Made by a program: the position numbers and the translations under genes
Part shown: piece by piece, positions 45,419 to 64,000 of the stretch
How the letters are laid out: each line of letters begins with the position of its first letter
Numbering within the stretch: position 1 is the stretch's first letter
The notes under the pieces: model-generated
Seen by the model: only the letters and a program-made list of their open reading frames with translations
Told to the model about the DNA's origin: nothing
Database searches by the model: none
Assembly (NCBI GenBank): GCA_024699855.1
Contig: JAMPIQ010000003.1
Location: forward strand, 4,402,001-4,466,000
Reading direction: 5' to 3'
Source: Aphelenchoides besseyi
Taxonomy: Eukaryota > Nematoda > Chromadorea > Rhabditida > Aphelenchoididae
Length of the DNA: 64,000 bases

Positions 45419-45787
45419 ATGTCGGCAAGAGGCGTTCTTGAAAAATCGAGAACAAAGAAGGCTGTGTGTCAGAGCAAATCATGTCCGTTTGTAAAGAATC
45501 AAATTAATCAAGTAAGCTAATCAAAGTAAACTTCTGAATCAAACTGTTTTAGTTGATTCGTGTTCGATCAGGGACGTTACTTATCCCGATTTTTTGGTAA
45601 GTATGCCCGAATTTGCACGTTAATGTTGGACTATTTTAGGCATGTTGGCTGCTGGGAATCCACGCACAATGCCATCACTGTTCCTCCAGAATTACAACAA
45701 CTCTACGATGATTTGAAAGGTTTGCATCAATCAAATCAGCACATTGATTTGAAATCTTTTAGCTTCCGAGAAGCCAATTATCACTAA
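45419..45787 (+). CDS. Small soluble protein (~95 aa), unknown
   Basis: Three exons join in phase: MSARGVLEKSRTKKAVCQSK...KNQINQ | LIRVRSGTLLIPIF | WHVGCWESTHNAITVPPELQQLYDDLK..., ending FREANYH. A TTGTTTAG acceptor lies 5 bp before the ATG. Introns are 40-45 bp. No signal peptide. Lies directly upstream of a reverse-transcriptase fragment. Confidence 0.5.
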
Positions 45788-45847
45788 ATCCGGACAGAAT
45801 TCTGAGGTTTGTGCTTTTAAGAATTTTGCTTACCAAATTTGCACGCA

Positions 45848-46810
45848 GTAGCCTGCTTTTAATGCCAACATCGGCAAACTAATTTGATTACCAGTGGACT
45901 AAAACTTTTCCCGATCTGTTGTGCGCACTCTGATTCCATTTTCCAACCAGTTAGCAAAACGCTCATTAACTGGAACCTGATTCCCTGCGCGAAAAGAGTC
46001 GCTTTCTTCATTGTGGCGTTTTGTGTGGCGATTTTTGGCGAGTGGACGCGAGTTGATCGAGACTGTTCAACCGCTTTGAACGTGACCAATTCTTTTTTAT
46101 TTTCCGCGCGTGACGCTCTTGATCGGCCTTGTGGTCTCTTTTCCCATCGGGTGTCCATTGAACCAATTTTGTGCTCCAACGGTTTTCGTTCTCGCGACTC
46201 ATGATCTTTTGAACGTAATTTCATTTGCGAGTTCGAAACGCAACCACGACGTCGTTGAGTTGTGTCTGTTGCCCGATCCACGTGCTTGGCCGTTTTTCTT
46301 TGAGGCGGATGTTGAGAAAACGCCGCTCCATTGCCCGTCGACAGCGAAGTAGACGAATTTCGGTTGTTTTGGTAAGCGCCCAAATTTCGCAGCCATAAAG
46401 CAGAGTCGGGACCACAACTTGTTGAAAGTATCGTCGTTTGATTGCCATCGGTGTTCGCTTGTTCGTGAGCAGCAATCTTGAGCGGTTGAACGCTGACCAC
46501 GCGGCTCCAATTCTTCTACCAATTTCGTGCTTGTGATCTTGCGGAAGCGTAATTTCGTGGCCCAAGTAGACGAATTGATCGACTCGTTCGATTGGTTCAC
46601 CAGCGTATTCCAGCGAAGCGTTTGGATTAACCAGTCGTTTCTTTTCATCCAGTTTTCTCGGGACATCCATTTTGTTTTGCCAACATTGATCTCGAGTCCA
46701 ACTTGTTCGCATTCCACCGCCATTCCATCGAGCATTGTTTGAAGTTCGGTCGGCGTTGAGTCAAAAAGACCCCAATCGTTATTTCGTTTGATACAGCACA
46801 TGAATTCGAA
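45848..46810 (-). mobile_element. Non-LTR retrotransposon fragment (RTE-like reverse transcriptase, 3' part)
   Basis: Minus-strand frames read LDGMAVECEQVGLEINVGKTK, then after a frameshift IERVDQFVYLGHEI, RRIGAAWSAFNRSR, VVPTLLYGCEIWALT and RRAMERRFLNIRLKEK, the conserved downstream part of endonuclease/reverse-transcriptase ORFs. The polymerase core and 5' end are missing. The low-coordinate boundary (GTAG(C/G)CTGCTTTTAATGCC) is shared with the copy at 62.26 kb. Confidence 0.8.
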
Positions 46811-46864
46811 TGTTCTTACTGACCATTTTTATTCATTGATTTGATCAAATTTCAGAGTCCAAGA

Positions 46865-48590
46865 ATGGAAATATTCGTTCATCTGCACGACCACGAAGAC
46901 AAAGAACACAAAAAAGTCTTCATTAAATTTGCAAATGACCAGGTAATATTTTGATGGATTAATTGATTGACTGAACCTTAATTAGGCCACGTTACGCGAA
47001 CTTCGACTCCAAATCTCGAAAAAATTCAACATTGATCAAGAAGATCAGATGTTGTTCTTGGAAAATGGAACGAAGATTTTCGGGTTCACTCCAGATGACA
47101 CGCTTCAAGCAATTGGTCTTCAGCACAAATCAAAGTTGATCGTCGTAAGTTCTTTTTAAACATACAGGGTATCTCAGTGAAAATTGACGTTTTGAAATCG
47201 AAATATCTCTTGTCAGAGTTGACGAATTTTTTCCGCTTTTTTGTATCAGTAGCTCGGGATTGAAATGTTTGATAGAAGTCACCTTCACTTCTCCAATTTA
47301 CTGCGAAGATCACGAAAATGGCAACCTTCCGAAATTTCTCATTTTCCGCTTTGAATAATTCGTTTCGAGGTTTTTGGAACTCAATTTCGACGCTTAGGAA
47401 AACAAACAAGCTTTTGGGTACCATTATTAAATCTTTATGCTCAATTTCATAGCATATTTTGATCTTGTTTTATCGTTCAGAAACACTCTGAGCTTCCAAT
47501 GTGGAAAGCATTTTTGGCCAACTATGATTTGGCATTAAACCGAAAAGGCGATGTTGAGGCAGTTGATGTGGCTCTGGACTATTTGAGACCGTTAGTGAAG
47601 GCAAAATTCCTGGTCACCTATCCTGCTTATGATGAAACATATCGACAGTTCAAAGCTCACTTTTCACACCGCATGGACCAGACGTTCAAATACATTGAAA
47701 TCGCCGTGCGGGATTATCTTTCCAAGGTGTTAAATGACAATGCGGAGTGCCCAACTCTCCAATTCAAATGTGAAAAGAAGGCGCCTGAGGAGAGTGGAAT
47801 TCAGGCGAGTTTTTATATTGTGTGTGATTTCTATGTTATATTTTCTTTAGGGCGGTCTGATTTGTAATGTTCTGAGAGGTGAAGTTTTGCTTGGGACGTA
47901 CTACGTAAAAGTGCACATGGACCTTCAGCATTGCCAAAAGGTTGATCTTCGTGAATTATTTCTTTATAAGTTGTTCGAGCTGATACGCGTAGGACCAAAA
48001 GTGCACTTCATACCAAACGCTCACTATTCTGGCTTAACACTTTACATTGGAACTGAACAAGGTAGCTTTGCCAAAATCTTTTAGTTTTGTATGATGCATT
48101 TACGTTTCAGTTCCCGGTTTTCGCCGAGCAGACGCTGAAGGTGTTGAGATAAGTAAAGAAATGTGGGCTCAGCGAGATTTTCTTCGTCGTGTATTGTTTG
48201 TAAAGGACCTTCATTCGAAGAATTACGGAATCGATTGTGATGGGAAACTCAGTATTGTCGACTTTCAGGTAACTGGATTTAATATCAGAATCTTTCTAAT
48301 TACTTACCTATGTTTAGATTAACAACAATTTCAACCATACAACGCTACAGAAATATTTGCATGGGTACAAAGGCTGGAAAGGAAGCAAAGAACTGCGCAT
48401 CCGAGTGGCAAAGGATTGCATCAACTCATGGAAATTTCCGGATGTGTTCGACGAAGCTGATGCAGGAATCGCCAACCAAAAAGAACTATTTCAAAAGCAT
48501 TCCATCAGCTACCTGCCAAGTCGAAGTCTGGTTGAGTATCTTATTCGAATTAAGAATAATGTTACATCGCTTTCTACGCTTTTACAATAA
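46865..48590 (+). CDS. UbL/kinase-like family protein, copy A
   Basis: Exons 46865-46942 and 46986-47144 encode a ubiquitin-like fold (MEIFVHLHDHEDK..., FNIDQEDQMLFLENGTKIFG...DTLQAIGL). Exon 3 starts at 47481 (KHSELPMWKAF) after a 336-bp intron that contains a transposon remnant. The C-terminal half is kinase-like: YYVKVHMD (possible ATP-binding Lys), DLRELFLYKLFELIRVGPKVHFIP (alpha-C-like), VKDLHSKNYGID (catalytic-loop-like D...N) and LSIVDFQI (DFG-like), ending SLSTLLQ. The intron after SGIQ either uses a GC donor (CAG|GCGAGT) or the later GTGTGT; both stay in frame. An AAATTTCAG acceptor precedes the ATG. The substrate is unknown. Plant PI4K-gamma proteins also combine UbL and kinase domains, but homology is not shown. 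Confidence 0.65.
47165..47420 (+). mobile_element. Transposon remnant in intron 2 of copy A
   Basis: Begins CAGGGTATCTCAGTGAAAAT, one terminal inverted repeat of the element seen complete at 54677-55401, and continues with the same subterminal sequence. The matching right end is missing, so it is a truncated insertion, which explains this intron's length. Confidence 0.7.
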
Positions 48591-48755
48591 AGTTTATCCT
48601 GTTCTCAAAAGTGGCGAAAGCTTTAAAATGTTGAGTGTATGCTTTTTCTCAGGTCTGGAGGGTAGTGGTGGGCGGGGGATTTTGGGTTGTCCCAGGTTTT
48701 TTGAAAAATGTCTTGTACGATAATTTGCTTAATTTTGGCGTTATTTGGCAATTAG

Positions 48756-49624
48756 AACACGGTCTACGAATGTATGCAGAGGAAGATTGTACATCGTGAT
48801 ATCAAAAACGAAAACATTGTGATTGATCTCATCAGCGGGAATACGAAGCGAATCGACTTCGGAGCCGCAACTTTTACGTCATCGAGACGTCGTCGCAATT
48901 TCCAAGGTACTCGTTTGTATACGGCACCTGAGTACTTCCATAGTGCCTTGTACTTGGATATGGAAGCTACCGTGTGGTCTGTTGGCGTGGTCTTGTACAG
49001 TGCTCTCAACGGTCAACTTCCGTTTCTAACTCAGAAAGACGTAATGACCAAACATTTGCTTGGTCCGCTTCCAAAGTTTCCCGTATACTCAACAGGTAAT
49101 AAATACTATATCGTATTGAATTCAACTAACGTTTTTTAGAAGCTGAAGAATTAATACGCTCGTGTTTGGCATACGAACCAAGTGACAGAATCTCGCTGAA
49201 AGCACTGCGCTCACATCGCTGGTTATCTAGATTGGAGAATTCAGATTGGGAATCATTGACGAAAGATTTGAAGATCATGAAAAATGACTTGAAATCTCTT
49301 TCTTCCTCGTCTTTTGAATCGGGAGTCGGAAGTTCGAATGAGCAATCGAATGCCATTGTGTTGGATGAGACGAGTTTGCGAAATGAAAAAACAAACGAGA
49401 ACGTAGATCACCAATACAACGACACGTCATCAACTAGAAGAACAAAACATCAGGATGTAAAACTTTCTGCAATTGATTGTCCAGAAACTCATGAGAGGAA
49501 ATCAAGGCGGTATGTTTCTAATCCTTCTTGGTTATTATGATGTTGTTTCAGAATTCTACCGAAAATGTCGCAGAACTCGGGCATTTCATCGCCGTTAGCA
49601 AGTCCATTGATTCTGAAGCACTAA
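48756..49624 (+). pseudogene. PIM-like Ser/Thr kinase, C-lobe only
   Basis: From an exon beginning NTVYECMQRK: catalytic loop VHRDIKNEN, DFG as IDFGAA, GTRLYTAPEYF, ATVWSVGVVLYSAL (the PIM-type AxVWS variant), FPVYSTEAEELIRSCLAYEPSDRISLKALRSHRWL, then a Ser/Asn-rich tail ending SPLILKH. The glycine-rich loop and VAIK lysine are absent: only ~165 bp separate it from copy A and they contain no N-lobe. So it is a 5'-truncated copy, or a C-terminal exon set once joined elsewhere. Confidence 0.7.
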
Positions 49625-49639
49625 ACATGATCTGAATTT

Positions 49640-50814
49640 TACATTGGTATCAATACGCGTATGTTTATGTGAATAAACCTTAAATTCAAGTTGATGTCTT
49701 TACTCTTATTTGATTGCAATTGAACCTTTCCGTAAGTGGAGATGATGGTTAGAAGTGGACCAGCAGCCCGATAGTGTATGTCGTAAAGATTGCGATGACG
49801 AGTACGTCCCTATTTGCTATTAGGTAATTGAATAAGTTCCTTTCAATAAGAACGAAAACAATGAGAACTTTAATCGTCGAATAGAAATTCACAGGATCGG
49901 TTGGCCTTCCTCATTGTCTAAGGTTGTCCTGTCGTTGATGATGTTCTGTGCTTGCCGTGTTAAAGCTGTGGAGAAATGAAGGTAACATTGCTACTTTCCT
50001 TCACTCACGAGCATCAATAATTGCCATGTGCATATTTAATGTCTTGTGAATTTATTGTTAAACGCAACTAGACTTTTGATCGCGTAAGCATTAACAAAAT
50101 CGAAATCATCTGCATAAGATCTGGCGGTAGAACAAGAGCTTTTTGAGCAGGTGATTGAAATAAAGCGATTGGTTCATTATGAACTACGTATTCAATCTTA
50201 TTCTACGCGGCTCCAGTATTACATTCCTGAAACTCTTGCAATTCGTCGGTCTAGTGCTCGAATCTCTCGAGTAACTGACGCTCATGAAGTGAACTTCTTC
50301 TAAAACTTATAAGTTGAGGAGCAGAAAGCGTTCGTCACTTGAGATTCCAAGGACGTCTCCGATCCATGTACTAATCAAGCTCATCGCTGCTTAACTTGCC
50401 AGATCGGACGGGATGGCGTGCATTCAACGAGATATGGACGAACACATTCGATTGGTGGAAGAGAAGACCTAAGAAGTGAGTTGCTGGCAGTCGGTAGTGA
50501 AATCAAATCGATTAGGTTGAAGCTGAAGACATCGATCAGATGAAGCTCCAGAACAAATAGCTTCGGTTCTCCACTAAAGAAACTAACTGCAACAAAAAAA
50601 GCTCAACTTAACAAACAGATCAGTAAAGTAAACTAATTGATTTCTAATGGATCCTAGTAATGTACTCGATATCTAAAGCTACCAAAACACGTGATTCACA
50701 CAATACTTTGCAATTTGCATGTTTTGTGTAAACCTCTTCAGCGTCTTTAAATTCAACAAATTTGTTTTGAGATTCAAAAGCCGCCAATCATTCTGATCGT
50801 CCGTCTTTTCAGTT
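49640..50814. other. Spacer without a supported gene
   Basis: 1.2 kb between the kinase fragment and a transposon fragment. Where the UbL exons of copy B would be expected, no UbL-like frame was found. Confidence 0.4.
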
Positions 50815-50982
50815 GAAGTCCATTTGCCATTTTTGTGATCTTCGCAGTAAATTGCAGAAGTGAGAGTTGCCTCTATCAAACATTTCAATGCCGAGCTACC
50901 TGATACAAAAAAGCGGAAAAAAATCGTCATCTCTAAAAAGAGATTTCGATTTCAAAACGTCAATTTTCACTGAAACACCCTG
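50815..50982 (-). mobile_element. Transposon end fragment, inverted
   Basis: Reverse-complement match to the first ~170 bp of the element at 54677, ending in the TIR TTTTCACTGAAACACCCTG at 50982. Only one end is present. It lies just upstream of the first kept exon of copy B, in the same relative place as the insertions of copies A and C. Confidence 0.7.
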
Positions 50983-51082
50983 CAATTTTATGACTGGATA
51001 CATTTGCTAAATTGCTTTGAGAGTTAGGGCGAAAATAAGAAATACTGCTTTACTAGTCAATGATTAATCTTTTGTGTTTCAG

Positions 51083-52267
51083 AAGCACTTAGGTATCGAT
51101 TTGTGGACAAACGTCATCAGTTGTCCGGCCAAAATTCTTCACGCGGACGTTGACGATCAACCCCGCGTTGCTCAACTCACGCTAGACTTGATGAATACTC
51201 TTGAGAAGAACAAGTTTTTCCTCTGCTACTACCATCTAATCGACGACATGCAGCGTATACGCGCTGAATTGCGCGAATATTTTAGTGGCGACAAATCTTT
51301 ATTGGAGGCGGCTACAAGAGAGTACTACCTCAAGTCGCTGAAAAAACGCAATTTGTTGAAAACCCCGTCGACATTTGACGTTTCATTTGGACCAAAACCT
51401 GGTGGAATTCACGTTGGATTTGTCGCGACTATTTGCCATGATGGAAGAAAAGATGTCTACTTCGTTAAAACTCATCATATGAGACCGACAAAATCCTCAT
51501 CAAGAGCAGCTTCCTCCCGGTACGTATCTATCAAACAATTAATTTATTTAACCGATGGTTCAGATTTGCGCGAAGTTTTCGCGTACATGTTGTTGAAAGT
51601 GATCGGCCTTGGGGCCGGAGTTTCACTTCTACGGGCGTCTCCAGGGAAAAGCTGAACTACACATTATGTTGCTACAAAGAACGTCCCGAACTTGACGCTC
51701 ATAGAGGTAACTTAATAGCTGTTAAACTGGTTTCAACTTTTTGCGTTTAGAAAGCAACAATGAATTCCCCAAACATCCAATCTATTATTCTCCAAATTCA
51801 TGTTGCAAGCTCAATTCTTTCCATCGGCGACGTTCATGAACGCAATTGCGACTTTTACAGCGAAGGTAGTGCAAGCATTTTTGACTTCAACGTGCCACCA
51901 ATTGGTAAGTTTTTTCTGTGAAATTTCAAAAATGATCACTTTGCTTTAAGACAGCCGCAAAAAGGACTACAAAATGAATCTTGACGACTTTAAAACTGAA
52001 AAGCCTCAATGTGTTGACACGTTGATCAATGATCGACAAGTTGGACAATTGAGTTCTTTCGCGCAAACTATTACGGCAGATGAGCGAATGGAATTCGGCC
52101 GAAAGCTGGTGCAAGAATGGAAGCTTTTGGAACACGTTGATATCGCAGTGGAAGAGATTATGTTGGTGAAGGAACGAATTCGCTCCAAAGGAGGTATCAT
52201 CGAAGACACCAGTGAATTCAAGAAGTATATCGAGGACGTCAAGCACAATATTTCTTTATTTACCTAG
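51083..52267 (+). pseudogene. UbL/kinase-like family, copy B (5'-truncated, frameshifted)
   Basis: The first exon starts KHLGIDLWTNV after a TTTGTGTTTCAG acceptor, as in exon 3 of copies A and C; no UbL exons were found upstream. Kinase-like landmarks: VYFVKTHHMRP, DLREVFAYMLLKVIGLG, and SIGDVHERNCDFY...ASIFDFN in a later exon. The frame breaks near 51610: the run GGGG would restore homology to GPKVHF of copy A if one G were removed. It breaks again near 51665. The last exon (MNLDDFKTEK... ISLFT) is open. Probably a pseudogene unless the breaks are assembly errors. Confidence 0.6.
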
Positions 52268-52661
52268 TAGTTTTTGTCTTTGGCTGATTTGAGTGTATCC
52301 ATTATTACTAATTTGAAAGACATGTGATCGAATAAGTGAGAAATGTATGCACTAAATAAAATCACAAATTTTCAACTCGCTCACACATCACTCCCCGAAT
52401 CCAATCAAAAGTTCAAACTGATTCCGTTTTACGGGTTGCTTTTGCTCATCCTTTGCACCAACTTGTTATGAATTCAAATTGTAATTGTGTTAAAATAAAC
52501 ATTTTTTGTTTACTATTCGCTTATTGATAAGCAATCAGGGTTTCAAAGATGTTGTAATTGAAGCAAAAAAACAATGCGAAGCAACGACCGGTCACTTGCT
52601 TCGCAAAGTGAAGTTTCTAACAGAGACTTGCGTTTTTTATTGTATGTGCGACATCAAAATA

Positions 52662-54332
52662 CAGGGTGTCCCAGCGAATTTCGAACATTTGAAGGGCTTA
52701 TAACTTTCTTCATAGCCAACCGATTTTGATGCGCTTTTTTGTGCCCGATCGCAAATTTTATGCCATTTTGTTTCATGTCAACAAATCTTTGAATTTCATT
52801 TTGGAAGGTGCCGTAAATTTGATTTTGGCGAAATGAACGCTTTTTCCTTTCTTTTTGTTTTGTCAAAATGGAGTGGTCGGCTCAAGAAAAAGCGTTTTGC
52901 GCAATCGTTTACGCTCAAACCAAAAGTCCGACTACAGTTCAACGACGATTTCGGCAACATTTTTAATAAACTCGTCATGCTGTTGTACCATCGAAAAGCA
53001 TGTTTAATCTGTGGATGAAGCAATTGCTTGAACGTGGACATTTGTTGCGAAAAAAGAAAGAAGTGCGAGGGGTTGTTTCATGAAACGTTTCTTAAATTGC
53101 TGTTCAGTTCATCAGGGTTTGACGACATCTTTTTGAACGTTCTGTGCGCTGTTCAAGAAGACCCCAATCGATCAGTTCGTGAAATCGCAAATCTTTTCGA
53201 CAACGTCTCAAAGAATACGGTACACAGAATCCTACAGGTACCCCAATTTTCGCTTCTTTTAAAATTCTTCTTTGTCCAGGCTCAAAAATTCCATCCATAG
53301 AAAATGCGTCTTCTGCATGAAATTCCGCCCGAAACTCCTTAAATTCCTATAGAGCATGCGATTCATTGTCTTGGACTCATCGACGAAAACTAAGACTTCT
53401 TGAAAAATCTCATATTCAGCGATGAAGCTCAGTTTGAAATGCATGGCCAAGTAAACAACCAAAATTTTCGATACTGGAGTGATCGAAACTCCAGCTGGTA
53501 AGAAGTTCGGTTGAACTGCAATAACAGAAAGAATCACAGGTTTCGAGAAAAACCACTCCATTCCCCTCGCCTGACGGTCTGGGCAGCCATAAGCAGAAGC
53601 GGAGTTGTCGGTCCATTCTTTTCTCGCGAAAATGTCACTGGGAATTCTTACTTGACATTGTTGCGTGATCAGTTCCTTCCGGCAGTTGAGCATTGGCCCA
53701 ACTTCTCCAAAATTGTTTTGATGCACGACGGTGCACCGCCACATTGGGCGGTTGCGGTTCGTCAATGGTTAGAGCAAACTCTGCCATTACGTTGGATGGG
53801 TCGTGGAAGCCCAAACGAACCACCACGAATTCGCTGGCGATCGTACAGCCCTGATCTGAATCCTTGTGATTTCTTTTTATGGGGGTACGTCAAAAGTCAA
53901 GTGTACCGGTCTCAACCAAACGATCTGAACGAACTTCAAGAGCGCATTAAGAACGTTTTCGCACACTTGCCCCAAGAAATGGTGCATCGTGCTATTGACG
54001 ATTACAAACGTCGACTTGAAAAGTTGATCGACAATAACAGTTTGAGTGTTGAAATTTGAATAAAAATTCCACATTTTTGTCTTGACCAAGTCGTGAAAAA
54101 AGCGGACGGAAAAAGAGTGAGAAGGAAAAGTGAGCAGAAAAAGCGTTCATTTCGCCAAAATCAAATTTACGGCACCTTCCAAAATGAAATTCAAAGATTT
54201 GTTGACATGAAACAAAATGGCATAAAATTTGCGATCGAGTACAAAAAAGCGCATCAAAATCGGTTGGCTATGAAGAAAGTTATAAGCCCTTCAAATGTTC
54301 GTTGGAGCTACGAAATTCGCTGGCCATAATAT
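52662..54332 (+). mobile_element. IS630/Tc1-mariner-type transposon with 163-bp near-identical TIRs
   Basis: Left repeat 52684-52846 and right repeat 54137-54299 are reverse complements with about two mismatches over 163 bp. The outer ends share CAGCGAATTTCG; the right one has ~10 extra bases. The interior carries a defective transposase. The element ends immediately before the first in-frame ATG of copy C. Confidence 0.85.
52868..54059 (+). pseudogene. Defective DDD transposase (DD41D-like)
   Basis: Starts MEWSAQEKAFCAIVYAQ with an HTH-like SPTTVQRRFRQHF, then a TAA stop, further stops near 53300-53400 and 53505, and a second helix-turn-helix part (DPNRSVREIANLFDNVSKNTVHRIL). Catalytic blocks: FSDEAQFEMHG, MHDGAPPHWAVAV and YSPDLNPCDFFLWGYVKSQVYR. 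Forty-one residues lie between the second and third Asp as read. At least four stops make it non-functional. Confidence 0.85.
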
Positions 54333-56272
54333 GGAACCGCTAAATCCACGCACAATGCCGTCAACAAAACCGCTGGTGCATCGAGAAGAGCCATTTAGTT
54401 TCGATGAAAAGGTCTATTGGATTATTTAGCTACATTAGGAATTTCTAGTTTTTAGACTATTTTCAAACAACTGCAGAGCTACATTGATTCTACTTTCCAA
54501 ATTGACAGCGCACATCAGCACATATTTCACAACGACAAACGAATGGGATTGAGAATTTCCGTCGACGATACTTTGGTTGCGATTGGATTCGGAAATGCTG
54601 ATATTGTCATCGTAAGTAGTTTTGATGTCCTTTACGCTATTCGGGCACAATTTCCAACATCACATTGTTAAACTTACAGGGTGTTTCATTGAAAATTGGC
54701 GTTTTGAAATCGAAATCTCTTTTTAGAGATGACGATTTTTTTCCGCTTTTTTGTATCAGGTAGCTCGGCATTGAAATGTTTGATAGAAGTCACCTTCACT
54801 TCTCCAATTTACTGCGAAGATCACGAAAATGGCAATCTTCTGAAATTTCTCATTTTCCGCTTTGAATAATTCGTTTCGAGGTTTTTGGAACTCAGTTTCG
54901 ACGCTTAGGAAAACAAACAAGCTTTTTATTGGGTTTCAAGGTGCTAACCGCTGTTTTCAACAACTTTTTCAAGACGATTTTTGTACTCATCAATTGCTCG
55001 ATCGATCATCGCTTGATCCAAGTTCCAAAACTCATTTTCTATTCTTTCTTGCAATTGATCCAAACTTGCGGGCTTCGTTCGATAAATCCGGTCCTTCACA
55101 TAACCTTATAGCCAAAAATCACAAGGTGTGAGATCAGGACTATACGGCGGCCAAGAAAGTGGGGCAGGAATTTGAACCGAACCACGGCCCATCCATCTGT
55201 CTTCGAAGTGCTCATCAAGCCACCTTCGAACATCAAGTGCCCAAAATGACGTCGAAATTGCCGTTGAACAGTCGTTGGACTATGGGTTTCAGCAAAACGA
55301 AGAATGCTTTATGTTCATTAGACCATTTCATTTCGAACTAACCGCACACAAAAAATGAGAGATTTCGATTTCAAAACGTCAATTTTCACTGAAACACCCT
55401 GCGCTTTTATGACTGGATGAATTTGCTAAATTGTTTTGGGAGTTAGGGCGAAAATTAAAACAGTTCTTTGTCAGTCAATAACGATATCTTTGCGTGTTCC
55501 AGAAACATTCTGATCTTGATTTGTGGAAATCGTACTGTGAATGTGCGAAAGAATTCCGCAACGCATATGGGGAGAATAAGAAAACAGTTGCTAATGACGC
55601 GCTCGTGTACAGCACTAAACTTCGCAAAACATCATTCTTTATCGTTTATCCAAAATTTGGAATTGAAGTATTGGGCTATCATCGACCAATTGGAAATTTT
55701 TTGGACAAGTCTATCGACTCTATCAAAGATGCCGCGACGAATTTATTCAATTGGGTAACATTCAAAGGACAAAGCCCAAACATTGCATTCGAGCCCGTAG
55801 ATGACAACGGCACAAGACCAGCAGTTCGCTGTACAGTCACCGTCAACGCTATAATTCACGAATACCGAATCAAATGCAATCACGATGCCGGAGGTACTAA
55901 TTCAGGTAACAAGTTTATACTTTTAACGATCCAGAACAGGCTTACCTATTCGTGTTTAGTCATGCGCTTTAAACCTGACATGATCNNNNNNNNNNNNNNN
56001 NNNNNNNNNNNNNNNNNNNNNNNNNNNNNNNNNNNNNNNNNNNNNNNNNNNNNNNNNNNNNNNNNNNNNNNNNNNNNNNNNNNNNGAGCAACGCAAATAT
56101 TGGGACTGAATACGGACGGCAGCCCCGTGATTGTGGACTTCATGATGGTCAAACTACGACCCGATAGAGAAATTCTTGAACAACACCGACACCCTCCAAG
56201 GCGAAAGAGTGCAAAAAGATCCTGGAGGATTGCAACGTCAGCAAAAGACTCGAGATAGCCAAAGAATCTATT
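54331..56272 (+). CDS. UbL/kinase-like family, copy C (interrupted by assembly gap)
   Basis: Exon 1 from ATG 54331 or 54355 (MPSTKPLVHREEPFSFDEK), exon 2 54456-54611 (TIFKQLQSYIDSTFQIDS...LVAIGFGNADIVI) form a UbL fold; a transposon fills intron 2. Exon 3 from 55503 (KHSDLDLWKSYCECAKEF...) is the divergent middle domain. After the N run comes GLNTDGSPVIVDFMMVKLRP, the DFG-like segment. The alpha-C-like and catalytic-loop parts fall in or near the gap. The 3' end is uncertain; an open frame stops at 56258. Confidence 0.5.
54677..55401. mobile_element. 725-bp deletion-derivative transposon in intron 2 of copy C
   Basis: TIRs CAGGGTGTTTCA...GAAAAT (54677-) and ATTTTCACTGAAACACCCTG (-55401) enclose ~725 bp. 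The minus strand holds a transposase piece in which a paired-like VQRQFRRHFG is joined directly to DVRRWLDEHFEDRWMGRG, SPDLTPCDFWL, a stop, GYVKDRIYRTKP and QERIENEF. The middle, including the first two catalytic Asp, is deleted. It is related to, but distinct from, the element at 52.66 kb. Confidence 0.8.
55986..56085. other. Assembly gap (100 N)
   Basis: A run of exactly 100 N, the usual placeholder for a gap of unknown size. Any frame drawn across it is meaningless. Confidence 0.98.
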
Positions 56273-56793
56273 GTTAAGTGGAGTTTTGTCCAGAAAGCTA
56301 GATGAGGCTGAGAAAAAACTCGACGAAGAGAAGGACGTAAATTTTTGGACGTGCGGAAAGCGATTGATTCTAGAGTACACAGACGGTAAAATAGAAAAAA
56401 AAAAACTGACTGTTACCTTAAACTGTGGTTTTTCATTTCGACTAATCAAACAGTAAACTCCGAAGAACTCGTTTTGAACAGTGGCATTTTTCTTCAACGG
56501 CTTTGAAACCAACTAAAAACCCTAACATTCACATTGTTCCATTACATTAACAGTCACTTATTGGATCACAATAATCGGCGATGTTGATGCGACGCACGTT
56601 GTTGCTCGTTGACTGAACAGATGTTTCTGTCATCTCAGAATACACTTTTTACCTTCATCATTTGTTCATTGTGTTAATAAAAGGTCGATAACCCTGGAAT
56701 CAATGTCAGCAACATTCTTTACTTCCACCAATTTTACTGAAATTCACAACAACAACGAAAATATGAATCAAAAGATGCAATACATAAACAGAG

Positions 56794-59700
56794 TTAATTG
56801 AGCGTTCGATTTGACATCCGCATGAGCGTAAACAACTTTTTCATCAACCTTCTTGACTCTTCAGCGGCCTGAAAAAACAGTTGAATTTCGATTGTCGTTT
56901 GAAATCATACCGTCGAAAACTCGCTATGATTCGGCTCCATCTCAGCGGCAAATGAAAGAAGTGCGTTGGCCTGAACAAGTGGAATCGAGTAGAGATCCTT
57001 AGACGTCAACTTCTGTTTAACCAATTTCTCCAGATGGCTATTCAGAACGGTGAATGCGTAGCTCAGTTCGTCGAACTCAATCGACTGATGCAAAAGGTAA
57101 CGAGCGTTGACTTTCTGAAGTTATTTTCGAATTAGAACATTTCGTGTTTGTGCTTACCGAGTATCGTTTCTCCAGCCATTTTGGTATCGGCAACGATCGT
57201 TCCAACAACAGACTCAAAATTGGATGCAAAACACGAACATCGGCAGAATTGTGTTTGAGGCTCAAGTCGACGAGTGCCACCAACAGTTTCCAATGCGGTT
57301 GAAGCGGCTCCTCGTTGCTGTAAAATTGAATTGAAAGAAATCACACAAGAAAACATACTTCGACACAAAATCAACGAAACGACAATTAGCGTAGAGCCAA
57401 TTTGGAACGTCGGTCAGAAGTTCATCACCAATTCCGATACAATCCAAAGTCAACGATTTGATCAATGGTGTGATATCCAAATTGAAATGTCTATAGAGAA
57501 AAATAAGTTTCATAGATAAGCAACATTCACTTTTGCAGAATGAACGCCAAATCGTAGAGTTTGTGTTGGACGGCTGCTGCGTAAACTTCGCTTGTTTCGA
57601 GCTTTGGACCTTCCGGAAATCCGCCGGTATCGACCAACGCCATTCGAGCTTCCAAGAGTAGATATTCGTTGTAGAGATCGTCTTTGCAAACATTCTGTAA
57701 ATGCAGTTAAAGTGCTTGGCTGTCATCTGAAAGCGAAATCAATTGTGTGAAAGTCGAATAACATTCATACCCATTTGACTTGTGTTTTCTTGATTGTTTT
57801 CATTCGGAGTTTCACCCTTTGAACTCAATCCTCGCAAGTCGAATTCGATGGAATGATTCGGCGGTAACATTTGAATTGTTTGACAAACACAAGAAAGAAC
57901 TCGTAGACGTTTTTCCAACACCTCTCTCGATTGTGCTTCCCAACGTAAACGCCAACAAAGATTGTACATGACGCGTGCCGCTGAATTTAATCACTAATGT
58001 TGTTCGCATTCATTTTTTCACATACCTGCTTCGTAGTTGTAACGATGAATGTAAAACGCGTAAACTGTTTCGAAAAATCCCGAATCATTCATTGGAGGCA
58101 TCGCTTGCATTTGGTTTCCAACAACTCGGCCACTTGATCAGTCAATTTACCACAATGAAGTGTAACCAACAACTTGGTTTTTCCCTTGTCGCAAAGAATG
58201 GCAATCAAGTTGCGAAGACAGTTTTCTTGTGAAGTCATGCTCGGATTCAAACGCAGGACTCGAATTGCTTCAAAATACTGTTCGGTGGCCACGTATTGAC
58301 TGAACAACGAAATGTAGATGGTCGGCTAAACAAATGCAGTTTTCTTCGTTAAAATACAAACTAACCCGAAGTGGATCGTCTTCAGCGGCAAAACTGAACG
58401 CAAAGATTCCCGTTCGAATCACGTATTCGGTTTGAGTTTGTTGCGTTTTGTAAATGTTCATTACAACACAAAAGAAATCGGTTAACGTGTGTTCGTACGG
58501 TGGTTCCTGTTTTGTGTAATGATCGAGAACTCGATTCAACGGTTCGTCTTTGGAGACTATTCCTTGACTTGCTTCTTCGAAAAACGATGCTGCTGCTGCT
58601 GCTGAAGGTTCTCCAAGACCAACAAGTGCAATTCCACGGAAGAAGTGAAATGCGGCTGATAGTTCAGTCAAAAACGGTTCATTGTGTTTGCAATAATCCT
58701 AAAAACGACATCTGTGTATTGACTACTCTCAAGGGCTTACATTCGATGCATCGTAGTGTTTGCTTTCTGCCAAAAATCGCGGGATTACCAGGGATTTTGA
58801 CTCGGGCCACAAAGCAACCATCGCACTCTCCAATGAATTGCTAACAAAACTGCTGAATTCCGACTCTCCAAAGTTGTCATTTCGTTATTTCACGGTTTTC
58901 GTCGTCCATGTCTTCATCGATGAATTCGCCGGTTTTGTTAATCGAAATCAAACCGCTTTTGAAAAACGCTTGAGCAATTGTATTCAGTCTCGATGTACGA
59001 CCAGCGTTCGAATCCGACTAGAAAACTCTGTGATTCCATTCGACAATTTGAATCTTACCTTAAGTATGTTGATGATAATGTCAACCAGAAAGTGTTGTAA
59101 TGTTTGATCGTTGACAAAATCCCGGCCAAATGTGAATTCACTACCGCATTGAAACGCTGATCAAGACTTCGTTCCTAAACAATCATTTCAATTCGTAAAT
59201 AGCAAGTTAACTAACCGCTTTGCCAACAGCAGCCGGAACTAATTTGGTTAACAGCGGAACTATTTTCGCGAAACACAAACGACCAAGTACACGATATCGC
59301 AGAGCGGTTGCCAACATTGCAGTCGAGAACGCAGAGTTCAAATACGACGACTTCAACCGATCAACTAAAAGCAATTGAAAGAGAAGAAGACAACTTGGAA
59401 TCATACGTTTGATATCCGATTGGTCTGCGTGACTGTCGGCAAACTTCTCGATAATCTTGCAAACAACATCCATGTCCGTTTTGATCAACGATTGATTGTT
59501 ACTCATGTCAACTTTCTAAAGCTCGTTGAGTTCATTTTGCAGCCTTCAAACTCACAAAATCACAAACAACATAATCTCGAGCCGCGTCAAAAAGCGTGTC
59601 AGCAACTTGACTGCTCGTCGAAAGCATCGATCGCATTTCGTAGTCCGGCGGAACATAAACGGTAAATCGACACTGAATCGAAAGATTATTGCTCTCCAAT

Positions 59701-61687
59701 AGCTTGTATATATTGCTTGTTGAATCGTTCCGATTAGTCCGAGTGCTGATGACTGCCGAATAGCTACGGGATTCAACGACGTTTCTTGAAACTGATCGCA
59801 ACATTCTTGAACATCCCACCAAAAGCGATCGTAAGCGGCACATAGTAGTGCTTGATCCATGTGCTTGACAGAAGCAAACCTCGATCTTGGTCTGACAAAT
59901 ACATTTGTTTGAACTAAAAACGATCTTCATCCTAACACAGGTTCATTTAGTTTACCTGTCCGGTTTGAACAAAAGACTCAGTGTGAACGGCTAATGCCGA
60001 CCAATCACGATAGGGTAAAGTAATGGTTGGACACTTGCAGACCGTTTGAACTGCTCGCAAAACGACCTCAAACGAATAAGTGTCGCCGTCGAAGACTCGT
60101 TGTTTGATCGATTTCGTTGTTGTTTCGGCAAATAGCAGCTTGTCAAAAATTGGATCTGGCATTCCAGGATCAATTGCGTCCCATGTGGAACTGTTCAATC
60201 CATTCCTGAATTGCCGAATTGATACGTTGAACAAGCAATAAACGACTCACAGTCAACGATACAACGGTGCATCAATACGGTTGGAACATCGCATCAGTAT
60301 GTTCGTTATCTTCGTACGACTCTCGAGTTATTGCCCATAACAAAATTTGGTTTGAAGCAACTGTCCATGCAACGCATTCAAAATCGACTACACTCGTCTA
60401 AACGAAACAGTTGAAGAGATTAGATAGATATAAAAATACCGAGTAAAGATCACAACTAGTCAGTTTGACAAAATCTTCTGCACGAACCGAAAAAAAACAA
60501 AAATCGAACTTTTTCCATCAACTGAATTTTGACGGCCACAACGTTCGTATCGTTCGTCGTAAATGTTTTCAACTGCACATCTTCGACATCAAACGCTGCA
60601 TCAGTTCGCAACGCATCAACCAAAGCATAATGCTCTTTGAAGAGTCCATCCTACATACCAATCAAATTAGCTTTCTTTTTGGTTGAATAGTAACCTGAGC
60701 ACTCCAAAATCTTAGTTTTCCATCCGATTGAACGCTAAACGCGTAGAGTTGACCATTGAATGTGCTCATTGCCACAGCCAACGCCGGTTCCGTGCTTTTT
60801 ACAAAAAACGACTGATCACCGATCCTTCGCGTGAAACATTTCAGTTGGATCGACTACAAAAGATGTCGAATTTCGTTGTTGTCGGTAAACATACCACAAG
60901 CTGAAGAATAGAAGAACGGCATTCGAACAACCGACAATTGTGCTTTGTTGTTGGCCACAAGTGCGAGTGTATCGTCTCGATAGTCGGCGCTGATGGCCAC
61001 ACGTGAGATCGTTATTCCATTCGGCATGTAGTAATGATCGTAGTAATTGGCAAATTCATCATCGCGTGGAAAATACGACAAAACTGAGCGATTACTCGAA
61101 TTTCGTTCTCCATCACCACCAATGCGAATCGACAGTCGATGCAAAGCGAAATGTGTCGGAATTATAATCACAAGTATACCGCGATGAAAGAACATGCTCG
61201 AACCGGGTATGATCATCGACGGACGCAAATCAATGCAAAGAGATGGAGCGTTGACGTCGCGAGTTGCAGAGATTTCGTTGAAGTGGATACGTGAACCTTC
61301 GGTTCGCCTAAAACCGTAGAATAGAAAACTGCAATTGAAATTGTGAACCCAACCAAAACAATACACGATTGTAGAAACCGAATCCATCGTCCGGAAAACT
61401 GAATGATCCGCCGGTCTCCGGAAGTTCGACCAATGCGAACGAGCGAACTGGTGAATCTGAAGAAACTGATCATAGACAAATACATCTTACTCACCGGTTT
61501 TCAATACGACGGTTCGATCCGGTTTACCGGGAAAGTTCGTGTAACTGAACGAAATTTCGGCGCCGTTAAACGATCTCATCGTGCCGTTCAATCTGCAAAA
61601 CAAATCTGATATCACAGAACAACACGTAAGAAAGAAACTCGAGTATACAAACGTTAAATGAGTCCAAACTCTCATCTTAATTGCCAT
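56794..61687 (-). CDS. NUP160: Nuclear pore protein NUP160
   Basis: A large multi-exon gene. The N-terminal beta-propeller starts MAIKMRVWTHLT, then FNGAEISFSYTNFPG, SLALVELPETGGSFSFPDDGFGFYNRVLFW (the NUP160 GG-F...NRxxxW block) and long beta-rich exons (ALHRLSIRIGGDGE..., DDTLALVANNKAQLSVVRMP). The helical C-terminal half includes AFHFFRGIALVGLGEPSAAAA, SLFSQYVATEQYFEAIRVLRLNPSMTSQENCLRNLIAILCD, VLHPILSLLLERSLPIPKWLE, and ends AAEESRRLMKKLFTLMRMSNRTLN. NUP160 is a scaffold of the Y-shaped NUP107 complex in the nuclear pore and at kinetochores. Central exon borders were not all resolved. Confidence 0.85.
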
Positions 61688-62255
61688 TTTCAGAAATGAA
61701 AGCCAAAAGATTTACGCGCGAATTTGAGAAACAGTCGCAATAAGACGCGGAAACTGCGCTCCGAAGAGCGAGTGGACGTCGATGAAACTCGCTCAGTTGA
61801 ACGGAAATCAATGATTCACTTCTGTGGACATAAGATCTTCAACTTCACGGTTGATTCCGATTGCTTTCAACTTGGCCGTTAGCTGTCGTCTTTCAAAAGC
61901 AAATGACGAGTTGCTAATGAATAAAGAAATGAGAAGAAATGACTCGCTGGGAGTCCACTTCTCTTGTGAGCAGATTGCCAACAATGATTGTTGCTATTCC
62001 TGGGAAACCTGTTGAGGGTACAAACGTGATTACCTTTTTCACCTTTTTGGTTTTGCAGTGTTTGTCGAGTTGTAGATCGTGTTCGTGGTTTCGCGTTCTT
62101 GATTGCCATGTTCTCTGCCCCCGACCTCGTCGTTGTCTCGCACTACACACATTTCAGAATGTACACGTGCCCGTGCGATTTCACAACCAATTGGAAGTCG
62201 AGCATGGCGACCCACAAGCGCATGAAACTTTGCAAGTATTGGCACGTTGTGTGGT
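61688..62255. other. Spacer between NUP160 and the second reverse-transcriptase fragment
   Basis: No supported gene. Likely the NUP160 promoter on the low side. Confidence 0.4.
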
Positions 62256-62650
62256 AGTAGGCTGCTTTTAATGCCAACATCGGCAAACTAGTTTGATTAC
62301 CAGTGGACTAAAACTTTTTCCGATCTCTCGTGCGCACTCTGATTCCATTTTCCAACCAGTTAGCAAAACGCTCATTAACTGGAACCTGATGCGAAGCGTT
62401 TGGATTAACCAGTCGTTTCTTTTCATCCAGTTTTCTCGGGACATCCATTTTGTTTTCCCAACATTGATCTCGAGTCCAACTTGTTCGCATTCCACCGCCA
62501 TTCCATCGAGCATTGTTTGAACTTTGGTCGGCGTTGAGGAAAAAAGAATCAAATCGTTGGCGTATGCGAGATAACGCAACTTTTCGGCTCCAATTTCTAT
62601 CCCGCGCGTTTCTCCCTCCTCCAAATACTCAAAATTAAAAAACAATCACT
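62256..62650 (-). mobile_element. Non-LTR retrotransposon fragment, internally deleted copy
   Basis: Near-identical to the fragment at 45.85 kb at both ends but lacking the ~630 bp corresponding to 45984-46613. It extends further 5' and shows the polymerase box as LRYLAYANDLILF, where the usual YADD is YAND, so the active site is changed. Shares the boundary sequence GCTGCTTTTAATGCC. Confidence 0.8.
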
Positions 62651-62825
62651 TTGATCCGCGCTTCATTAACCAAGATCTTAGGTCTGCGGCCGCTCATCTC
62701 TCAATTATATCTATTTAGGTGTCTAAGTTTTGTCGACTTCTTCAATTTCTTTCGCTTAATTATTCACAATTGCGTGTTTAAACTTTTGTGAATAACTTTG
62801 TCATTTTTAGGCATTGACCAACACG

Positions 62826-64000
62826 ATGGATTTGATCATTGACTTACAAGATCACACCGGCAAGTCTCATCGAAATAGAAAATTGAAGTTCGGAGATAAG
62901 GTTTGTTTTTTAATTCTTTTGGATGCTGTAAAACTACTGTTTTAGGCGACCGTTGAACAACTACAAGATCAAATTCAGTCTACGTTCCAACTCCCAGTAG
63001 ACTATCAAGAAATCTTTTGTGGTGAAGAGCGTATCGACTTGCTTGATTCGAATTCTCTTCTATCTCAACTCAACTTGAAGCGCGTGAAAGGGTTGATTGT
63101 GGTAAGTCGTTTTAACGGGCTTTATCTCTTTTTGGGCGTTTTGAATAATTCGTTTCGAGGTTTTTGGAACTCAGTTTCGACGCTTAGGAAAACAAACAAG
63201 CTTTTGGGTACCATTATTAAATCTTTATGCTCAATTTCATAGCATATTTTGATCTTGTTTTATCGTTCAGAAACACTCTGGGCTTCCAAGTTGGAAAGCA
63301 TTTTTGGCCAACTATGATTTGGCATTAAACCGAAAAGGCGATGTTGAGGCAGTTGATGTGGCTCTGGACTATTTGAGACCGTTAGTGAAGGCAAAATTCC
63401 TGGTCACCTATCCTGCTTATGATGAAACATATCGACAGTTCAAAGCTCACTTTTCACACCGCATGGACCAGACGTTCAAATACATTGAAATCGCCGTGCG
63501 GGATTATCTTTCCAAGGTGTTAAATGACAATGCGGAGTGCCCAACTCTCCAATTCAAATGTGAAAAGAAGGCGCCTGAGGAGAGTGGAATTCAGGCGAGT
63601 TTTTATATTGTGTGTGATTTCTATGTTATATTTTCTTTAGGGCGGTCTGATTTGTAATGTTCTGAGAGGTGAAGTTTTGCTTGGGACGTACTACGTAAAA
63701 GTGCACATGGACCTTCAGCATTGCCAAAAGGTTGATCTTCGTGAATTATTTCTTTATAAGTTGTTCGAGCTGATACGCGTAGGACCAAAAGTGCACTTCA
63801 TACCAAACGCTCACACTATTCTGGCTTAACACTTTACATTGGAACTGAACAAGGTAGCTTTGCCAAAATCTTTTAGTTTTGTATGATGCATTTACGTTTC
63901 AGTTCCCGGTTTTCGCCGAGCAGACGCTGAAGGTGTTGAGATAAGTAAAGAAATGTGGGCTCAGCGAGATTTTCTTCGTCGTGTATTGTTTGTAAAGGAC
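62826..64000 (+). pseudogene. UbL/kinase-like family, copy D (cut by window end)
   Basis: Exons 62826-62900 and 62946-63101 encode a distinct UbL fold (MDLIIDLQDHTGKSHRN, QSTFQLPVDYQEIFCGEERIDLLD, LNLKRVKGLIV). From about 63140 to the window end it is almost identical to copy A (47346-48208). A 2-bp insertion (GCTCACACTATT near 63813 versus GCTCACTATT) shifts the frame to a stop seven codons later, removing the catalytic-loop and DFG-like parts. Either a pseudogene or a sequencing/assembly error in a duplicated segment. Confidence 0.65.

What the first reader, a model, noticed from the sequence alone, without database searches (positions are those of the whole stretch)
46865..64000. Four-copy family fusing a ubiquitin-like domain to a degenerate kinase-like domain
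Copies A, C and D each begin with two exons coding a ~75-aa UbL fold, differing strongly between copies, followed by a large exon starting KH(S/L)(E/D/G)L. Copies A and B then show Lys in Y(Y/F)VK, DLRE(L/V)F...(V/L)G, D(L/V)H..N and (V/F)DF(Q/N) motifs, which read as a kinase-like ATP site; copy C shows only the last (VDFM). I know of no described metazoan family with this layout; plant PI4K-gamma proteins are a precedent for UbL plus lipid-kinase fold. Divergent UbL parts with a shared core suggest exon shuffling or rapid selection.
Basis: partly seen in the sequence, partly recalled or inferred. Interest (0 to 1): 0.8.

Follow-up and report, generated by a model that had tools for sequence, protein, structure and literature searches.

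The report
Nematode kinase family swapping ubiquitin-like domains
A plant-parasitic nematode carries a family of kinase genes, some of them riding in virus-like transposons, whose front end, a ubiquitin-like module, has been exchanged between copies while the kinase part stayed the same, which suggests that the module is an interchangeable targeting device.

Summary

The family has about 26 loci here (a few weak) plus four found later, and members in other nematode genera and one insect record. One subfamily sits in repeated elements with a chromodomain integrase (3 of 6 loci), once also PolB: Maverick-like cargo. It is probably the 'krma kinases' reported as Maverick cargo; that paper was not readable here.

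UbL and core behave as exchangeable modules. Between copies A and E silent divergence is 0.76 in UbL exons but 0.069 in the core. Two UbL types and two core types occur in all four combinations in this genome, switching within a mariner-like insertion in intron 2. UbL and core trees conflict (AU p below 1e-9). Best mechanism: the UbL docks on a target, the kinase phosphorylates it, and swapping the UbL retargets it.

The parts
46865..46942 (+). Copy A exon 1, first part of UbL-alpha (26 aa)
   Evidence: Open model, GT donor; 89.7-97.7% DNA identity over 44-78 of 78 bases at five other loci
46986..47144 (+). Copy A exon 2, rest of UbL-alpha (53 aa)
   Evidence: 92.5% identical over 159/159 bases at L020/L031, where it precedes a different core
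47153..47415 (+). Remnant of a mariner-like (DDE transposon) insertion in intron 2 of copy A; switch points between copies at 47337 (A/D) and 47415 (A/L020), deletion joint at 47319 (A/L004)
   Evidence: repeated in copy C 54665-54926 (93.6%), copy B 50824-50990 (inverted match), L003, L004, L020
47481..47804 (+). Copy A exon 3, start of core (KHSEL...), followed by a GC-AG intron
   Evidence: 99.1% DNA identity to D exon 3
47851..48061 (+). Copy A exon 4: GGLIC, YYVK (catalytic Lys), DLRELF (helix C Glu)
48111..48268 (+). Copy A exon 5: KDLHSKN (catalytic Asp, Asn) and VDF (metal Asp)
48318..48590 (+). Copy A exon 6, C-terminal helices and stop codon
48756..49540 (+). Downstream protein-kinase C-lobe fragment that travels with core-A copies; fused to copy A by the public annotation (P0013)
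   Evidence: Pkinase positions 112-263 of 263; close copies at 5 places in the genome
51083..51519 (+). Copy B core exon (KHLGI...); no UbL exon found upstream, only a remnant of the intron-2 insertion
   Evidence: exon end read by eye
51565..52267 (+). Rest of copy B core (approximate limits, introns included) with a change of frame; keeps GDVHERN and FDF
54456..54614 (+). Copy C second leading exon, UbL-like (called UbL-gamma here)
   Evidence: same length (159 nt) as exon 2 of A and D
54677..55401 (+). Fuller mariner-like insertion in copy C intron 2: inverted ends and an antisense transposase relic; its left part (54665-54926) is homologous to A 47153-47415
   Evidence: relic 53% identical over 103 aa (E 1e-40) to the transposase frame at 53502-54056, which matches DDE_3 at 7.9e-6
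55503..56258 (+). Copy C core (core-C type), interrupted by 100 N and a frame change
   Evidence: 96.5% DNA identity over 403 bases to L031
62826..62900 (+). Copy D exon 1, UbL-delta
62946..63104 (+). Copy D exon 2, UbL-delta
   Evidence: 94.3% DNA identity over 159/159 bases to L062, where it precedes core-C
63125..63205 (+). Part of the mariner-like insertion in copy D intron 2; homology with A begins here
63271..64000 (+). Copy D core-A, frame-broken in exon 4; continues past the window
45419..45806 (+). Leader exons joined to copy A in the public annotation (P0013); membership uncertain

Best explanation
Copy A is an intact member of a nematode family of UbL-plus-atypical-kinase proteins, most likely the krma kinases carried as cargo by Maverick (Polinton) virus-like transposons, resident and expanded in Aphelenchoides besseyi. 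The core is a HipA/PI4KII/actin-fragmin-kinase-type fold with its catalytic residues in place, probably an active kinase acting on proteins (inferred). The UbL is not a conjugated modifier, since it runs straight into the core without Gly-Gly; it is most likely a docking domain that brings the kinase to a ubiquitin-system or other UbL-binding partner (inferred). UbL exons 1-2 behave as a cassette: recombination or gene conversion, in the traceable cases within a mariner-like insertion in intron 2, joins one core to different UbLs and one UbL to different cores (shown by sequence). This would change the target while keeping the enzyme (inferred).
Confidence: 0.62

Rival explanations
1. Ordinary gene family with fixed architecture in which the UbL part diverged fast under positive selection; no exon exchange.
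For: UbL protein sequences differ far more than cores in A versus D; UbL dN is higher than core dN in A versus E (0.19 versus 0.05).
Against: Silent sites show the same imbalance (dS 0.76 versus 0.069) and UbL dN/dS is 0.25. The converse also occurs: P0021 and P0025 share 69/73 UbL residues but 88/299 core residues. All four UbL-by-core combinations exist.
Confidence: 0.04
2. UbL exons and core exons are separate neighbouring genes that annotation or chance has joined.
For: No transcript evidence for this genome; public models of A and D contain doubtful joins, such as fusion to a kinase fragment (P0010, P0013).
Against: The splice phase keeps one open frame across exon 2 and exon 3 in A. Proteins with UbL plus core occur in several nematode genera. 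Uninterrupted UbL-plus-core frames of 404 and 402 aa lie on contigs of only 1502 and 1512 bases (P0003, P0004), as expected of spliced transcripts or intronless genes.
Confidence: 0.05
3. Relics of Maverick cargo: all copies in the window are decaying passengers without function in the host, and the recombined UbLs are by-products of transposon-rich DNA.
For: B, C and D are broken; core dN/dS 0.76 for A versus E; transposon pieces abound nearby (DDE transposase and reverse transcriptase in the window; a Helitron at L056).
Against: Catalytic residues are kept in nearly all members; A and the public model of E (P0002) are open; UbL dN/dS 0.25 for A versus E, and core-C dN/dS 0.37 over 161 codons for window C versus L031.
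Confidence: 0.25
4. A UbL-bearing kinase of the plant PI4K-gamma (UbDK) type, a lipid or protein kinase of the normal ubiquitin pathway inherited vertically.
Against: No PI3_PI4_kinase Pfam match for A, nor among the 25 of 28 families shown for the alignment members; patchy list of species; core 298/309 identical between C. bovis P0025 and C. japonica P0037 with unlike UbLs; Maverick-like carriage.
Confidence: 0.04

Closest known systems
krma kinases of nematode Mavericks (work of Widen and colleagues, 2023; seen here only as one passage in PMC10680173)
   Same: Nematode, multi-copy, kinase-like, a subfamily carried by Maverick-like elements, present in scattered genera
   Different: Sequence identity with published krma could not be tested; UbL cassette exchange is described here from the data and I do not know whether that paper reports it
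Plant PI4K-gamma / UbDK proteins (recalled)
   Same: N-terminal UbL plus PI4KII-like kinase fold
   Different: No PF00454 match found; the nematode family is mobile and modular; homology by sequence not shown
HipA / PI4KII-alpha / actin-fragmin kinase fold group (4pu3, 3dnv, 4hnd, 1cja)
   Different: 9-14% identity; extra N-terminal helices and UbL
msft-1 toxin element of C. briggsae, whose toxin derives from Maverick-associated proteases (passage seen in PMC12941216)
   Same: Another Maverick-associated nematode gene family, which gave rise to a selfish toxin
   Different: Protease family, not kinase; no toxin or antidote role tested here

Membership tests
krma kinases (Maverick cargo) | Nematode multi-copy kinase-fold family | tested here: met
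krma kinases (Maverick cargo) | Carried within Mavericks (PolB and integrase) | tested here: met
   Met for the related subfamily M only: integrase at 3 of 6 loci, same-strand PolB at 1 of 6; not for window copies A-D (nearest PolB 1.3 Mb). Capsid genes not tested
krma kinases (Maverick cargo) | Sequence match to published krma genes | not testable with these tools
   Paper not held; no sequence so named was seen
krma kinases (Maverick cargo) | Horizontal spread between nematode species | tested here: inconclusive
   Core 298/309 identical between C. bovis and C. japonica, but no genome-wide baseline was available
Ubiquitin-like domain | Beta-grasp fold | tested here: met
Ubiquitin-like modifier (conjugated) | Mature C-terminal Gly-Gly | tested here: not met
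   UbL of A runs into the core as ...KLIVKHS
HipA/PI4KII/AFK atypical kinase fold | Fold and catalytic Lys, Asp, Asn, Asp | tested here: met
   Top 8 rows (model of P0008); residue counts; weak Pfam matches only, APH 3 of 27 members best 4.1e-4 and ABC1 3 of 27 best 5.7e-4
Plant PI4K-gamma (UbDK) | PI3_PI4_kinase (PF00454) sequence signature | tested here: not met
   No match for copy A at E<=10; not among the 25 of 28 families shown for 27 members
Canonical protein kinase (PF00069) | Pkinase profile match in the UbL-plus-core protein | tested here: not met
   None for copy A; matches in fused models P0012 and P0013 fall in the downstream C-lobe fragment

The most novel reading that the evidence does not exclude
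A transposon-hinged combinatorial system: a mobile family of kinases, spread between nematodes by virus-like Mavericks, diversifies its targeting by exchanging UbL docking cassettes through a repeat in intron 2. Each kinase core can be re-aimed at a new component of the host's or a rival element's ubiquitin machinery, as in an arms race or a selfish toxin-antidote cycle.
Probability: 0.3. Interest if true: 0.85.

Novelty: new variant of a known kind. Interest (0 to 1): 0.62.

Why it matters
Recurrent exchange of a protein-binding module on a fixed enzyme, shown by silent-site divergence, a complete two-by-two set of combinations and conflicting trees, is a clean case of exon shuffling in animals recent enough to trace at the DNA level. 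It occurs in a family of which part rides on virus-like elements. It suggests how Maverick cargo could change targets quickly, and it gives a direct test: swap the UbL and ask whether the binding partner changes while kinase activity does not.

Tried and rejected
Copy A against Pfam gave 0 families; against PDB sequences 4 matches, best E 0.04. Viral contigs: no match to any pattern of P0005; with A1, 55 stretches matched a pattern and none was a relative. The full-length model filled the VIA list with ubiquitin folds, so the core was modelled through the core-only protein P0008. dN/dS through an alignment-mapped copy E failed because of misregistered exons and was redone exon by exon. The exon 5 and exon 6 difference counts of A versus D are out of register because of an indel and are not used. 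Proximity to PolB alone (3 of 18 clusters within 20 kb, 0.28 expected, p 0.0025) could reflect transposon-rich regions; its loci were hand-grouped plus window copies B and C, and L061-L064, found later, were not included. The locus at C2:17.30 Mb has PolB on the other strand and a Helitron in between and is not counted as an intact arrangement. VIA lists are limited to Foldseek's candidates, so kinase folds not listed are not excluded. The intron-2 insertion was first called mariner-like by eye and then checked. Paper searches: krma, Maverick cargo, Aphelenchoides genomes, Polinton integrases, plant UbDK, Mavericks plus fusogen (two further reviews listed, not opened) and UbL exon shuffling in nematodes (0 papers). 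None gave the primary krma paper; that the UbL swap is absent from print is therefore not claimed. Passages of PMC11071296 and PMC11071308 were seen and not used.
Full report
WHAT IS THERE. The window is G000:C3:4402001-4466000 of a 47.39-Mb, 31-contig assembly. Public Aphelenchoides besseyi M3Y96 proteins lie on contigs of exactly the lengths of its C2 and C3 (P0002, P0010). Copy A gives an open 400-aa protein from six exons with GT-AG introns and one GC-AG intron. Copies B, C and D are related but damaged. A search of the genome with the A protein gave 54 exon matches, which I grouped by hand, adding window copies B and C, into 26 loci in 18 clusters; two of these are weak (E 0.007 and 0.09).

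FAMILY. Protein searches gave 11 hits at E<=10 of 2414 candidates with A alone, 34 at E<=1 of 5522 with profile A1, and 30 at E<=0.1 of 5316 with profile A2. Named sources are Aphelenchoides besseyi, eight Caenorhabditis (briggsae, bovis, tropicalis, angaria, remanei, japonica, auriculariae, sp. 36), Mesorhabditis, Auanema, Halicephalobus and one insect record (Sitodiplosis mosellana, 18.6-kb contig). Uninterrupted UbL-plus-core frames of 404 and 402 aa on contigs of 1502 and 1512 bases (P0003, P0004) look like spliced transcripts or intronless genes (inference).

UbL AND CORE ARE SEPARATE MODULES. In A. besseyi, UbL-alpha (copy A type) precedes core-A (A, E), core-C (L020/L031) and core-B-like cores (L026, L034). 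UbL-delta precedes core-A (D), core-C (L062) and another core (L061, L063, L064). DNA identities: UbL-alpha exon 2 of A versus L031 92.5% (159 bases) while the cores share 23% of residues; UbL-delta exon 2 of D versus L062 94.3% (159 bases); core-A exon 3 of A versus D 99.1% (324 bases); core-C of L031 versus L062 100% (308 bases). All four combinations of alpha/delta with A/C therefore exist, which requires recombination. Homology between copies switches at 47337 (A/D) and 47415 (A/L020), and a deletion in L004 starts at 47319, all inside the 263-base remnant of a transposon insertion in intron 2. In copy C this insertion is fuller, with inverted ends and an antisense relic 53% identical over 103 aa to a DDE transposase frame nearby. 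A versus E: UbL dS 0.76 and dN 0.19 (78 codons); core dS 0.069 and dN 0.052 (311 codons). Selection on protein cannot produce that silent-site contrast. Within the core, dS falls from 0.13 in exon 3 to 0.020 in exon 6, so gene conversion tracts are likelier than one clean switch in that pair.

THE SAME IN OTHER GENERA. Over 120 pairs of 16 full-length proteins, UbL and core identity are uncorrelated (Spearman 0.12, p 0.18; pairs are not independent, and P0025 and P0032 look like variants of one gene). C. bovis P0021 and P0025 share UbL 69/73, core 88/299. C. bovis P0025 and P0036, on a contig of the same length, share UbL 17/72, core 316/322. C. bovis P0025 and C. japonica P0037 share core 298/309 but align over only 21 UbL residues (4 identical). 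On 20 proteins the core data reject the holders of one UbL type as a clade (AU p 4.4e-10), and the UbL data reject the holders of core-A as a clade (p 1.3e-11) (LG+G4 without mixture model, some long branches; groups were chosen after seeing the alignment). The pairwise identities are the more robust evidence.

MAVERICK CARRIAGE. A subfamily of six loci (L019, L021, L022, L023, L025, L030) lies in repeated elements: L021, L022, L025 and L030 are 93.6-99.2% identical to L023 over 2.8-3.5 kb, L019 89.5% over 1.7 kb. A retroviral-type integrase lies downstream on the same strand at 3 of the 6 (4.3 kb at L023 and L030, 5.8 kb at L021; the L030 one is below the Pfam cut-off). At L023 it scores rve 3.5e-8, and an overlapping next frame scores Chromo 2.4e-5, just below the Pfam cut-off. 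PolB (PF03175) lies about 6 kb upstream on the same strand at L030. Capsid genes were not tested. The window copies are not near any PolB found (1.3 Mb). [quoted passage not shown] I judge this family to be krma, or a close sister, with probability about 0.75.

MECHANISM. Shown: architecture of A, folds of models of relatives, conserved catalytic residues, module exchange, Maverick-like carriage of a subfamily. Inferred: active protein kinase; UbL as docking domain, having no Gly-Gly end; retargeting by exchange. That plant PI4K-gamma proteins act as protein kinases on ubiquitin-pathway proteins is recalled, not looked up. The rival that the window copies are decaying passengers is kept at 0.25, since three of four are broken and core dN/dS between A and E is 0.76.

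Noticed in passing
window 48756-49540: Protein-kinase C-lobe fragment downstream of core-A copies, fused to them in public annotation; close copies at five places, one (C2:12.73 Mb) with no core match from this family beside it.
   Followed up: partly
window 45419-45806: Leader exons (with a CxxxxC...HVGCW pattern) joined to copy A in P0013; matches at about ten loci, some without a core match; no Pfam match.
   Followed up: partly
window 45859-46828 and 62268-62645 (minus strand): Retroelement fragments upstream of A, D and other UbL copies, 82-96% alike in DNA; the D one matches RVT_1 at 4.7e-7, the A frame tested matches nothing above 0.15.
   Followed up: partly
window 52662-54330 (approximate): Mariner-like element with 165-base inverted ends (98.8%) and a DDE_3 transposase frame (7.9e-6) between copies B and C.
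   Followed up: partly
window 56.7-61.7 kb (minus strand): Apparent multi-exon gene; one of four frames tested matches HEAT_Nup120 weakly (1.4e-5, under the cut-off), so perhaps a Nup160-like nucleoporin.
   Followed up: partly
L056 (C2:17299001-17307500): Helitron with Helitron_like_N (2.2e-59) and PIF1 (7.8e-53) between a PolB and a kinase-family gene.
   Followed up: no
P0019: Insect (Sitodiplosis mosellana) record of the family on an 18.6-kb contig: horizontal transfer or contamination.
   Followed up: no
P0011: Mesorhabditis belari model joining UbL and partial core to a Tc1/mariner-type transposase (PF01359).
   Followed up: no
C3:6131068-6138716 (L062, L020, L031): Adjacent copies with 100% identical core-C start (308 bases) but different UbLs (delta, alpha).
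   Followed up: yes
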